Positions 3,027 through 6,273 of a stretch of 64,000 nt of DNA are shown in pieces. Location of the stretch: NCBI GenBank assembly GCA_021299875.1, contig JAJTEW010000004.1:124001-188000 (forward strand), written 5' to 3'. The first letter of the stretch is position 1. Each line of letters opens with the position of its first letter. The notes beneath the pieces are model-generated. The model was not told the origin of the DNA. It searched no databases and saw nothing but the letters and a program-made list of their open reading frames with translations. Made by a program: the position numbers and the translations under genes. The DNA comes from Comamonadaceae bacterium (GTDB taxonomy: Bacteria; Pseudomonadota; Gammaproteobacteria; Burkholderiales; Burkholderiaceae_C).

Positions 3027-3746
3027 TCAAGTCTTGGTGTAGCGCTCAAAGCCCGCTGCCCGCAACTGGCATGCCGGGCACTGGCCGCAGCCATAACCCC
3101 AATCGTGGCGCTGCGTGCGGTCGCCTAAATAGCAGGTGTGGGTGTGTTCCACAACCAAGTCCACCAGCGCCTGACCGCCTTGCGCCGAGTCGGCTTGTTG
3201 GCCCACATCGTGTGCCAGTTGCCAGGTTTGGGCCTTGTCGATCCACATCAATGGCGTTTCGATCAGCAGCTTGCGGTCCATGCCCAGCGACAGGGCGACC
3301 TGCATGGCCTTCATGGTGTCGTCGCGGCAGTCGGGGTAGCCCGAAAAATCGGTCTCGCACACCCCGGTGACGATGACCTGCAAACCCCGGCGGTAAGCCA
3401 GCGCAGCGGCCAGCGTGAGGAACAACAGGTTGCGCCCCGGCACAAAGGTGTTGGGCAGGCCCGAGCCTTCCATCTCGATGGCGGTGTCGCGGGTCAGGGA
3501 TGTTTCGCTGACCTGCCCCAGGATGCCCGCGTCCAGCAAATGGTCTTCGCCCATCTTGGGGGCCCAAGTTGGAAAGCGCGCCTTGATCGCAGACAAGACG
3601 TTCAGGCGCGCGTCCAGCTCGACCTTGTGGCGCTGACCGTAGTCAAACGCCAGGGTTTCGACGCGTTCGTAACGGCTGAGGGCATGGGCCAAGCAGGTGG
3701 TGGAGTCTTGGCCACCAGAAAACAGAACAAGGGCAGAGGTGTGCAT
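3027..3746 (-). CDS. queC: 7-cyano-7-deazaguanine synthase
   Basis: A 239-residue protein of normal QueC length. It makes preQ0 from 7-carboxy-7-deazaguanine, ammonia and ATP in the queuosine pathway. The PP-loop ATP pyrophosphatase motif SGGQDSTT is at residues 10-17, and the C-terminal zinc site is CYLG...CGQCPAC. ATG at 3746 is chosen because the ATPase strand begins immediately after it; the frame stays open upstream but that part is low-complexity and proline-rich. The 440 bp upstream is the repeat-rich gap described separately. Confidence 0.95.
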
Positions 3747-3830: not shown

Positions 3831-3914
3831 GCGATTGGAAGGGGGCGGCTGCGGGCTCCTCATGAGGCGGGGGTACGCCAAAATCGTCGCCCGCCGCCGC
3901 CCCCTTCCAATCGC
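3831..3914 (+). repeat. Hairpin element A: long stem presenting a conserved 31-nt loop
   Basis: A perfect 19-bp inverted repeat (3831-3849 with 3896-3914) extends inward with a few mismatches. It encloses a 31-nt core at 3858-3888. The core is made of the palindrome CCTCATGAGG, a small GGCG/CGCC hairpin and an AAAATCGTC tail. The same core occurs exactly, inverted, at 4060-4090. Confidence 0.85.
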
Positions 3915-4032
3915 TGGTGGTGGTCGTCAGTCTTGCTGGCGGTAAATACATTCCTTGCTGGTGGTGACCGCTTTTCTTGCAGCCATCAAACGCTAGCCTT
4001 GAGCGTACTGGCCGCGCAGCCCATGGTCTGCT

Positions 4033-4118
4033 GTGGGTGGGTGAGGGCGGGTAGAGGGTGACGATTTTGGCGTACCCCCGCCTCATGAGGAACCCTGTGC
4101 CCGCCCTCACCCACCCAC
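4033..4118 (-). repeat. Hairpin element B: same core, inverted, on a different stem
   Basis: A perfect 19-bp inverted repeat (4033-4051 with 4100-4118), a 3x3 internal loop, then about 5 more pairs, enclosing the 31-nt core at 4060-4090 as the reverse complement of 3858-3888. The stem sequence is unrelated to that of element A, yet is also fully paired. A 10-base partial match to the core tail (CGCCAAAATC) follows at about 4127-4136. Confidence 0.85.
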
Positions 4119-4188: not shown

Positions 4189-6273
4189 GTGTCCCCCCAC
4201 CTCCCCATCCTGCGCGAAGTTTTTGGCTACGACGCCTTTCGCGGACCGCAGCAGGCCATCATCGACCATGTGGCCGCCGGGGGCGATGCGCTGGTGCTCA
4301 TGCCCACGGGCGGGGGCAAATCACTCTGCTACCAAATTCCGGCCATTGCGCGCCAACGCGCAGGCCACGGCATCACGGTGGTGGTCTCGCCGCTGATCGC
4401 GCTGATGCATGACCAAGTCGGTGCACTGCACGAGGCGGGCGTGAACGCCGCTTTTTTGAACTCCACCCTGACGAGCGAAGAAGCCAGCGACATTGAACGC
4501 CGCTTGTTGCGCGGCGAAATCACCCTGCTCTACGCCGCGCCTGAACGCGTGACCAACGGCCGCTTTTTGGCGCAGATGGACTCGCTGCAAGAGCGCGGCC
4601 TGCTGAGCCTGTTTGCGATTGATGAAGCGCATTGCGTGAGCCAGTGGGGGCACGACTTCAGGCCCGAATACCGGGGCCTCACGGTGCTGCACGAGCGCTA
4701 CCCCAGCGTGCCGCGCGTGGCGCTCACGGCCACGGCCGATGCGCTGACGCGCGCCGACATCATCGAGCGGCTGCAACTGGAAAGCGCCGAGCTGTTCATC
4801 AGCAGCTTTGACCGTCCCAACATCCGTTACACCATCGTCGAGAAAAAAGAAGCCAGCACCCAACTGCTGCGCTTCATTGAGCGCGACCACCCCGAAGCCG
4901 CGGGCGTGGTGTATTGCCAGTCGCGCAAACGGGTGGAAGAGGTTGCGGCCATGCTGTGTGAGGCGGGCGTCCATGCGCTGCCGTATCACGCGGGTCTGCC
5001 CGCCGAGATGCGTCAGCGCCACCAGAACGAATTTCTGCGCGAAGAGGGCGTGGTGATGGTGGCCACCATCGCATTCGGCATGGGCATCGACAAACCCGAT
5101 GTGCGTTTTGTGGCGCACCTGGACATGCCCAAAAACATCGAAGGCTATTACCAAGAGACGGGACGCGCCGGGCGCGACGGCTTGGCGTCAGACGCTTGGA
5201 TGGCCTATGGCCTGCAAGACGTGGTCAACCAGCGCCGCATGATCGACGAAAGCCCGGCGGGCGAAGAGTTCAAGCAAGTCATGCGCGGCAAGCTCGACGC
5301 CCTGCTGGCCCTGGCCGAAGCCACCGACTGCCGCCGCGTGCGCCTGCTGAGCTACTTTGACGAAACCTACAAGGGCCAAACCGAAAGCAGCCAGGGCGTG
5401 TACATGCCGTATTGCGGCAACTGTGACAACTGCCTGAACCCGCCCGAGGTGTGGGACGGCACCGATGCGGCGCGCAAACTGCTGTCCACCGTTTACCGCT
5501 GTCACCAGGCCAGCGGCCACAGCTTTGGCGCGGCGCACACCATGGACATCGTGCGCGGCAAAAAAACCGAAAAAGTGGCGCAACGCGGCCACGAGAGCAT
5601 CAGCACCTTTGGCGTGGGGGCCGAGTACAGCGACCAGCAACTGCGCGCCGTGATGCGCCAGCTGATCGCCATTGGCGCGCTGCATGTGCACACCGAAGAA
5701 GGCTTCAGCACCCTGCACCTGACCGAAGGTTCACGCGCCGTGCTGAAGGGCGATGTGCCGGTGCAGCTGCGCGAGAGCACCAGCCAGCGCGCCGACAAAC
5801 GCACACGCAGCCGCAGCGCCCCATCCCCCGCCGCCGCCAACCTGGGGCAAGACGCGATGGTGCGCTACATCAACCTCAAGGCCTGGCGCGCCGAAGTGGC
5901 CAAAGAGCACAACCTGCCCGCCTATGTGGTACCTCAATGGGCAAGCCCTCACCGCGCCACATCAAGTACAGCGCCAGTTGCCGCATCTCCAAAGCACCCC
6001 AAGGCGGGGTTTCGGCGCGAATTCCGGCATAGCAACTGCGCAAGCGTCGCTCCAGCGATCCCGGTTTTTGCCATTCCAAACGGTACACCGGGTAACCATT
6101 GGGCTGCCCTTGACTCAGCAGGTCGGTGTATAGGCGTTGCCCAAAATTCTGGTCATGGCACTGGGCGCACGACAAATTCATTTGGCCTTGGCGTTGTGAA
6201 AACAAAGTCGCCCCCGCTTGCCAGTGGTCGCGCGCCGCACCGCCAACGTCTACCCGCAAAGGCATGCCTTTAG
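4189..6273 (+). CDS. recQ: ATP-dependent DNA helicase RecQ with a foreign, read-through C-terminus
   Basis: Residues 1-580 are a normal RecQ: Walker A GGGKS at 41-45, the DEAHC box, helicase C domain with QETGRAGRDG, the zinc cysteines ending CGNCDNC, the RQC winged helix, and the beginning of the HRDC domain (LKAWRAEVAKEHNLPAYVV). At about base 5930 homology stops. The last 114 residues are simply the antisense of soxA, so the HRDC domain is cut and the frame runs on to a chance stop. RecQ unwinds duplex DNA 3' to 5' in recombination and repair; the HRDC domain is an accessory DNA-binding part. The start is GTG at 4189, with no obvious ribosome site. A functional truncated helicase is possible, as is an assembly artefact. 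Confidence 0.85.
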   Translation: MSPHLPILREVFGYDAFRGPQQAIIDHVAAGGDALVLMPTGGGKSLCYQIPAIARQRAGHGITVVVSPLIALMHDQVGALHEAGVNAAFLNSTLTSEEASDIERRLLRGEITLLYAAPERVTNGRFLAQMDSLQERGLLSLFAIDEAHCVSQWGHDFRPEYRGLTVLHERYPSVPRVALTATADALTRADIIERLQLESAELFISSFDRPNIRYTIVEKKEASTQLLRFIERDHPEAAGVVYCQSRKRVEEVAAMLCEAGVHALPYHAGLPAEMRQRHQNEFLREEGVVMVATIAFGMGIDKPDVRFVAHLDMPKNIEGYYQETGRAGRDGLASDAWMAYGLQDVVNQRRMIDESPAGEEFKQVMRGKLDALLALAEATDCRRVRLLSYFDETYKGQTESSQGVYMPYCGNCDNCLNPPEVWDGTDAARKLLSTVYRCHQASGHSFGAAHTMDIVRGKKTEKVAQRGHESISTFGVGAEYSDQQLRAVMRQLIAIGALHVHTEEGFSTLHLTEGSRAVLKGDVPVQLRESTSQRADKRTRSRSAPSPAAANLGQDAMVRYINLKAWRAEVAKEHNLPAYVVPQWASPHRATSSTAPVAASPKHPKAGFRREFRHSNCASVAPAIPVFAIPNGTPGNHWAALDSAGRCIGVAQNSGHGTGRTTNSFGLGVVKTKSPPLASGRAPHRQRLPAKACL

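What the first reader, a model, noticed from the sequence alone, without database searches (positions are those of the whole stretch)
3831..4118. Two hairpins carry one identical 31-nt loop on unrelated stems
Seen directly: 3858-3888 and 4060-4090 are exact reverse complements, and each is framed by its own perfect 19-bp inverted repeat (3831-3849/3896-3914 and 4033-4051/4100-4118). The stems share no sequence, but both pair. A fixed loop on interchangeable paired stems is the pattern expected when structure is conserved and stem sequence drifts or is swapped. The loop itself contains the palindrome CCTCATGAGG and a mini-hairpin. Inference: this may be an uncatalogued repeat family, either an RNA element or single-stranded DNA hairpins recognised at the loop, as REP or attC sites are. 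It does not match either of those.
Basis: partly seen in the sequence, partly recalled or inferred. Interest (0 to 1): 0.72.

Follow-up and report, generated by a model that had tools for sequence, protein, structure and literature searches.

The report
Capped hairpins with exchangeable stems
Two DNA hairpins in a freshwater bacterium belong to an apparently undescribed family of dispersed repeats whose tip stays the same while the long paired stem can change completely, which gives biologists a natural system for watching how hairpins keep or swap their stems.

Summary
The window is a Limnohabitans-like genome (Comamonadaceae); the hairpins lie between queC and recQ. The same 'cap' (8+8-nt internal loop plus mini-hairpin) sits on mostly 20-30-bp, near-perfect stems in 87 of 90 congeneric genomes and 51 of 399 genomes sampled from the family. 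Stems covary: 17 of 20 outer pairs changed on both sides. The structured strand is GACGATTT-hairpin-YATGAGGA: its stem mismatches are G.T 366 against A.C 36, and 71 stem clusters against 2 agree. At the window's own locus two genomes carry a different stem under the same cap; its left arm matches unpaired flank in six of the 14 loci with the usual stem, and its right arm is that flank inverted. Copies form pairs of one polarity, sit in frame in uvrA linkers and, in one clade, lie between inverted copies of the repeat that flanks the resident RAYT gene (10 of 372 elements). Best reading: a REP-like repeat recognised at the cap as a folded single strand, with stems kept and replaced by fold-back copying. 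Recognition protein and function are inferred. REP membership fails on stem conservation and RAYT flanking.

The parts
3831..3856 (.). Hairpin 1, left arm (19 bp perfect, mismatch at 3850, 6 bp more)
3857..3888 (-). Hairpin 1 cap: internal-loop half TCCTCATGA 3857-3865, mini-hairpin 3866-3879, internal-loop half AAAATCGTC 3880-3888; the structured strand (GACGATTT..ATGAGGA) is the minus strand here
3889..3914 (.). Hairpin 1, right arm
3915..4032 (.). Spacer between the two hairpins; length and sequence vary between genomes
4033..4059 (.). Hairpin 2, left arm (21 bp with wobble, mismatch at 4054, 5 bp); pairing extends outward with mismatches to 4025
4060..4091 (+). Hairpin 2 cap, GACGATTTTGGCGTACCCCCGCCTCATGAGGA; the structured strand is the plus strand here
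4092..4118 (.). Hairpin 2, right arm; outward extension to 4126
3027..3746 (-). queC (flanking gene; start codon chosen by me at 3746)
   Evidence: ORF; TIGR00364 200.5 bits, cut-off 150.3
4189..6273 (+). recQ (flanking gene)
   Evidence: ORF; TIGR01389 692.4 bits, cut-off 640.2

Best explanation
A family of small dispersed hairpin repeats of the Comamonadaceae, here called capped hairpins. The conserved part is the cap: an 8x8 internal loop that on the structured strand reads GACGATTT / YATGAGGA (register drawn by me: tandem G.A pairs, a C-G pair, tandem G.A pairs again, then U.U and U-A) around a variable mini-hairpin. The cap sits on a stem, mostly 20-30 bp, of nearly free sequence. SHOWN: strand-specific structure, coupled stem change, one locus with an in-situ stem exchange in which one arm is local flank and the other its inverted copy, paired copies of fixed polarity, dispersed near-identical copies in some genomes. 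INFERRED: (1) stems stay perfect and are replaced because, during replication, a strand folds back at the cap and one arm templates the other (template switching); (2) the cap is kept because a protein recognises the folded single strand, most likely ssDNA, as TnpA_REP/RAYT proteins recognise REP hairpins, so that the repeat spreads like a REP/REPIN; (3) the resident RAYT carried at least the composite copies of one Limnohabitans clade.
For: Structure: 17 of 20 outer pairs change on both sides, covariation 0.587 against 0.138 shuffled; at one orthologous uvrA site (14 sequences), 10 pairs with both-sided change (2 of 500 shuffles reach that) and 30 such cells against 8.1 shuffled. Strand: stem mismatches on the structured strand G.T 366, A.C 36, G.A 50, G.G 50, T.C 17, C.C 12 in 356 distinct elements; by cluster 71 to 2 with 10 ties. 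Against each cluster's commonest pair, it holds for changes from C-G (80 to 15) and from A-T (29 to 3), so C deamination alone does not explain it. In uvrA-only copies it holds antisense (sites A, C, D: 48 G.T, 4 A.C) and sense (site B: 14, 2). Loop ends switch together: T..TC 240, G..GC 26, A..GT 10 of 302, the other 26 being mixed. Fold-back copying: at queC-recQ, L392 (G025) and L395 (G061) have a stem whose outer 22-nt left arm beats all 200 shuffles in 8 and 11 of 42 other loci, among them six with the usual stem (L017, L019, L020, L022, L024, L026; up to 20 of 22); the right arm does so only in the other swapped locus and, weakly, in L021, whose stretch is printed reversed. Coupled Watson-Crick changes 176, one-sided 321, other two-sided 16 in 222 nearest-neighbour comparisons. 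Pairing: of 58 neighbours under 300 bp in the 115 loci, +- 46, -- 8, ++ 4, -+ 0. Mobility: near-identical pairs at several sites in one genome. RAYT: 10 of 372 distinct elements lie between inverted copies of the clade's RAYT-flanking repeat.
Against: No capped hairpin lies in any of the 30 Y1_Tnp loci fetched, about 1.5 kb each side at most. RAYT orthologues occur in 370 of 399 family genomes against 51 of 399 for the cap, so RAYT presence does not predict the cap, and in the window's clade I saw no cap between RAYT repeats. No target-site duplication or clean recent empty site was shown. The uvrA site D 'empty' allele in G020 and G058 can also be read as a deletion between TTTG repeats. Each strand of a pair shows the structured form of only one member. 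Stem exchange rests on one locus, and the flank match is missing in 8 of the 14 usual-stem loci, the window included (one of the 8, L021, is the reversed stretch). Elsewhere coupled changes are mostly single pairs (130 runs of one, 23 of two), which selection for pairing would also give. One covariation measure, the number of further pair types, was not above shuffles (198 of 500 reached it).
Confidence: 0.5

Rival explanations
1. A structured RNA element: the structured strand is transcribed and the internal loop binds a protein or RNase; stems are under RNA-level compensatory selection.
For: G.U-type wobble is ten times commoner than A.C on one strand; RNA folding is more stable on that strand in 79 of 83 cluster representatives; tandem G.A pairs are common in RNA motifs (recalled).
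Against: Copies occur in both orientations inside uvrA, and the wobble bias is as strong in the antisense ones (48 G.T, 4 A.C) as in the sense ones (14, 2); an antisense transcript could still explain it. Pairs hold one copy in each orientation. No Rfam family at gathering score in the window; below it 26 matches in six loci, nearly all miRNA-type hairpins.
Confidence: 0.22
2. A by-product of mutation only: any inverted repeat with a suitable loop is kept perfect by template switching, and the cap is conserved merely because copies descended recently from one ancestor; no protein recognises it.
For: Template switching is reported to create and maintain hairpins (PMC8794818, abstract and start of introduction seen); coupled changes and the stem exchange fit.
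Against: Template switching alone gives no reason for the G.T against A.C strand bias or for an internal loop conserved across 27 of 141 sampled genera while mini-hairpin and stems diverge. At six orthologous sites the loop core varies 0-1%, arms 1-14%, flanks 30-50 nt away 16-41% (the finder favours intact caps and flanks may be misaligned, so the contrast is an upper estimate).
Confidence: 0.15
3. A true REP/REPIN of the resident gltB-linked RAYT, with an unusual long stem.
For: Composite copies between inverted RAYT-flanking repeats in one clade; a Y1_Tnp match in 23 of 23 carriers searched; same-polarity dimers, strand-specific recognition and a required mismatch zone are REP features (PMC8266576, PMC3733652, passages seen).
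Against: No terminal GTAG/CGTC tag was seen, stems are not conserved, caps do not flank the RAYT, and the RAYT's own flanks are a different repeat, AATTGGGGTCAGATC...
Confidence: 0.12

Closest known systems
REP elements and REPINs/BIMEs with TnpA_REP (RAYT)
   Same: Short dispersed hairpins, often intergenic, inverted pairs of one polarity whose members may have different stems, structure read on one strand, mismatch zone inside the hairpin (PMC8266576, PMC3733652 passages).
   Different: REPs carry a terminal GTAG or CGTC tag and stems of 5-13 bp conserved within a family; here the conserved part is apical, stems are mostly 20-30 bp and exchangeable, and units do not flank the transposase.
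Rickettsia palindromic elements and other in-frame bacterial MITEs
   Same: Palindromic, about 100 bp, also fused in frame inside conserved genes (PMC2229807 passages).
   Different: RPEs have shared terminal inverted repeats (same passages); here only the cap is shared.
Template-switch (quasipalindrome) hairpins
   Same: Perfect arms kept by copying one arm onto the other; whole stems can arise in one event (PMC8794818 abstract and start of introduction).
   Different: As far as I saw, no shared cap or dispersal there; here one cap recurs on unrelated stems.
Integron attC sites
   Same: Hairpins recognised as one folded strand (integron integrases are named beside TnpA_REP in a PMC8266576 passage); variable stem sequence (recalled).
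   Different: attC keeps conserved outer boxes and a variable tip (recalled); this is the reverse, and no integrase context was sought.

Membership tests
REP (GTAG/CGTC superfamilies) | Terminal unpaired GTAG or CGTC tag at the hairpin foot | tested here: inconclusive
   Flanks printed for pairs show no recurrent GTAG/CGTC at the feet by eye; a GAGC-like sequence recurs in one clade. CGTC occurs inside the cap. No statistical flank test was run.
REP (GTAG/CGTC superfamilies) | Stem of about 5-13 bp conserved within the family | tested here: not met
   Arms of 12-48 bp in the printed elements, mostly 20-30; 83 stem clusters among 356 elements.
REP (GTAG/CGTC superfamilies) | Units flank the cognate RAYT gene | tested here: not met
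   0 of 30 Y1_Tnp loci carry a capped hairpin within the fetched flanks.
REP (GTAG/CGTC superfamilies) | Inverted dimers of one polarity predominate | tested here: met
   58 neighbours under 300 bp: +- 46, -- 8, ++ 4, -+ 0.
REP (GTAG/CGTC superfamilies) | Strand-specific binding by TnpA_REP | not testable with these tools
   Only the strand bias of mismatches was measured.
MITE (transposase-ended) | Shared terminal inverted repeats and target-site duplication | tested here: inconclusive
   RAYT-type ends on 10 of 372 elements; no target-site duplication was established.
Rfam RNA families | Score above a family's gathering threshold | tested here: not met
   0 matches in the window; 26 sub-threshold matches in six loci, 25 to miRNA families and one to RNAI.
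Integron attC | Conserved outer boxes and integrase context | not tested
   Only recalled.

The most novel reading that the evidence does not exclude
A selfish DNA whose only heritable sequence is a hairpin tip. Wherever the cap lands or survives, fold-back DNA synthesis primed at the cap copies the adjoining host flank into an inverted repeat, so each copy builds its stem from local DNA and can replace it later; a host ssDNA-binding protein reads the cap alone.
Probability: 0.2. Interest if true: 0.88.

Novelty: new variant of a known kind. Interest (0 to 1): 0.7.

Why it matters
Compensatory change is usually read as proof of RNA function. Here a dispersed DNA repeat shows textbook covariation, also in copies that are antisense inside a coding gene, with one locus at which a whole stem was exchanged for the neighbouring flank and its inverted copy. 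It lets two causes of covariation (copying between arms and selection for one folded strand) be told apart in one natural system, with many orthologous sites for comparison. It also suggests a REP-like repeat recognised through its tip and not through a terminal tag.

Tried and rejected
Rejected or left open. (1) Phage or plasmid origin: hairpin 1 as query had no match in the phage and plasmid collections (a cap on another stem could be missed); a strict pattern gave 0 in viral contigs; a looser one gave 11 exact matches, none with a paired stem by the finder, so probably chance. (2) Insertion of the cap into pre-existing palindromes: considered because RAYT-ended composites are longer palindromes; not shown. 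(3) Empty-site reading of uvrA site D (L086, L087): ambiguous, see evidence against. (4) RAYT as sole driver: see rivals. (5) An early reading that G-U pairs are absent was an error of strand; the wobbles are on the other strand. (6) Other phyla: three of the 80 titled pattern hits are from other phyla (L228, L230, L248) and have no stem, so probably chance; four stem-bearing hits bear Akkermansia or Chitinophaga titles, of which L205 matches contig G140:C16 in length and elements, and G140 is placed in the window's own family. Of 115 pattern loci, 105 carry an element by the relaxed finder and 10 do not. (7) In one search only 20 of the other queC-recQ loci were compared and the right arm had no shuffles of its own; one search repeats it on all 42 with both. 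The cluster of site D holds at least one copy from elsewhere; one search counts uvrA copies alone.

Literature: searches listed no paper that, by title and shown abstract start, describes this repeat; and others list only part of their hits. Seen: abstract and start of the introduction of PMC8794818; passages of PMC8266576, PMC3733652 and PMC2229807. No paper was read whole.

Full report
WHAT IS THERE. The coordinates of the finding are exact. Hairpin 1 is 3831-3914 and hairpin 2 is 4033-4118, each with 26-27-bp arms and an internal mismatch around a 32-nt loop. Shuffled windows gave no 14-bp inverted repeat with a loop up to 80 nt (0 in 20 shuffles; 13 register hits in the real window). The pair lies in the intergenic stretch between queC (minus strand) and recQ (plus strand), named by NCBIfam.

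FAMILY AND RANGE. BLAST found seven matches in the own genome (two of them are hairpin 1 on both strands). A covariance model built from 34 copies found 13 matches in the own genome at E<=0.01, and matches in 87 of 90 congeneric genomes. At E<=0.001 it matched 51 of 399 sampled genomes of the family, in 27 of 141 genera. An order-wide sample gave 4 of 399 genomes at E<=0.0001, all four of the own family; its listing shows 12 rows of the own family and is truncated, so the number of other-family genomes is not given. The model's short calibration makes E-values rough, and large searches used stricter filters. The genus is taken as Limnohabitans because contigs of its G-genomes agree in length and elements with titled Limnohabitans contigs (for instance G015:C7 with L189, G024:C9 with L182, G014:C9 with L211). 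Titled hits also include Rhodoferax, Malikia and Hydrogenophaga.

ANATOMY. In 302 distinct elements the loop core is nearly invariant: on the structured strand GACGATTT on the 5' side and YATGAGGA on the 3' side. The mini-hairpin between them takes many forms, such as GGCG..CGCC, CTG..CAG, CTGG..CCAG and CGG..CCG. The finder demands most of this core, so its conservation is overstated; the form recurs in loci fetched by the model. The outermost loop positions mostly switch together: T..TC in 240 of 302, G..GC in 26, A..GT in 10, and 26 in other combinations such as G..TT (9) and A..GC (5). On the structured strand this is a tandem G.A replaced by two Watson-Crick pairs, and both states occur at one orthologous uvrA site.

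WHICH STRAND. Stem mismatches on the structured strand are G.T 366 and A.C 36, with G.A 50, G.G 50, T.C 17, C.C 12, T.T 13 and A.A 7, in 356 elements with 7909 Watson-Crick cells. Counting each of 83 stem clusters once, G.T exceeds A.C in 71, the reverse in 2, and 10 tie. Taken against each cluster's commonest pair, the bias holds for changes from C-G (80 to 15) and from A-T (29 to 3). The finder penalises all mismatches alike. I read this as selection for the folded form of one strand, RNA or ssDNA. In uvrA, copies at sites A, C and D have the structured strand antisense and show 7:1, 12:2 and 29:1; site B is sense and shows 14:2 (49 distinct elements in all). So the uvrA mRNA is not the selected molecule at A, C and D.

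STEMS. Outer pairs: 17 of 20 show both-sided change; one of five measures there, further pair types, was not above shuffles. At the orthologous site D, 14 sequences give 10 such pairs and 30 such cells against 8.1 in shuffles. In 222 nearest-neighbour comparisons, 176 coupled Watson-Crick changes stand against 321 one-sided and 16 other two-sided ones. The clearest event is at the window's own locus. Of 43 queC-recQ stretches, 14 carry hairpin 1 with the usual stem (mostly GGAAGGGG-type; loci were partly chosen by a BLAST with that stem), and L392 and L395 carry the same kind of cap on another stem, 23 and 25 of 26 bp paired. Its outer left arm matches unpaired flank beside the usual stem in six of those 14 loci (L017, L019, L020, L022, L024, L026; 17-20 of 22 nt, above all 200 shuffles for at least one of the two queries) and not in the others, the window included. 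Its outer right arm matches above shuffles only in the other swapped locus and, at 17 against 16, in L021, whose stretch is printed in the reverse direction. So one arm is local flank and the other its inverted copy. Which stem came first was not tested with a tree. L382, L393 and L400 look like deletion chimaeras between the two hairpins.

ARRANGEMENT AND SPREAD. Neighbours under 300 bp apart in the 115 loci are +- 46, -- 8, ++ 4, -+ 0, with + meaning TCCTCAT first, so structured strands point outward in +- pairs. These loci partly overlap in content between relatives. In some Limnohabitans genomes near-identical pairs recur at several sites with spacers of about 45 bp. Three copies lie in frame in the own 2047-aa UvrA (read by me as double-length), and pairs lie in long UvrA-like frames of two other genera (by reading). 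Hairpin 1 had no BLAST match in the phage and plasmid collections, and no stem-bearing copy was found among viral-contig pattern hits.

LINK TO RAYT. A RAYT (NCBIfam REP_Tyr_transpos: 81.9 bits in L304, over the cut-off of 80; 76 in the own genome, below it) sits beside a gltB-like gene (by reading). Of 15 loci whose RAYT flanks were printed, 8 have AATTGGGGTCAGATCAACATTAATT-type repeats and 6, of the window's kind, AATTGGGGTCAGATCCCAATT (one more in part). In the first clade, 10 of 372 distinct elements by a strict motif lie between inverted copies of that same repeat, and more are visible by eye, e.g. in L168 and L093. But no capped hairpin lies in any of 30 Y1_Tnp loci, and the RAYT orthologue is in 370 of 399 family genomes. 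So RAYT carriage is supported for composites only.

READING. A REP-like dispersed repeat recognised at its tip as a folded single strand, with stems maintained and exchanged by fold-back copying. The copying step follows a reported mechanism (PMC8794818, abstract and start of introduction). Recognition of strand-specific ssDNA hairpins with a mismatch zone is reported for TnpA_REP (PMC8266576, passages). REP membership fails on stem conservation and RAYT flanking, and no tag was seen. The RNA reading remains the main rival.

Noticed in passing
L046:3654-9797; uvrA loci; L155, L171: The long uvrA (about 2000 aa) has hypervariable inter-domain linkers that collect several other in-frame repeats besides the capped hairpin (peptides such as KLGSDPNS, MDPRVKPEDD, SPRFARDD).
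   Followed up: partly
L293-L309: A RAYT beside a gltB-like gene carries clade-specific flanking repeats; in one clade the same repeat is dispersed elsewhere in the genomes.
   Followed up: partly
L340, L341, L345, L352, L168, L093: Composite palindromes: the RAYT-flanking repeat, then the capped hairpin, then the inverted RAYT-flanking repeat.
   Followed up: partly
L382, L393, L400 (queC-recQ): Apparent deletion chimaeras joining the left part of hairpin 1 to the right part of hairpin 2 through the cap or arm repeats.
   Followed up: no
L384, L392, L028 (queC-recQ): A different repeat (GTCACCCCCGACTTGATCGGGGGTCC..) interrupts the cap of hairpin 2 in these three loci.
   Followed up: no
window 5930-6273: The recQ frame leaves the RecQ profiles near residue 581-583 of 694; the C-terminal part looks unlike RecQ, perhaps a frame change.
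   Followed up: no
L185, L196, L205, L208: Contigs titled Akkermansia or Chitinophaga carry capped hairpins; L205 agrees with G140:C16 of the window's family, so those record titles look wrong.
   Followed up: partly
L020 (upstream of hairpin 1): Tandem repeat of about 10 nt (GCGGCTGGGC) in the flank beside the hairpin.
   Followed up: no
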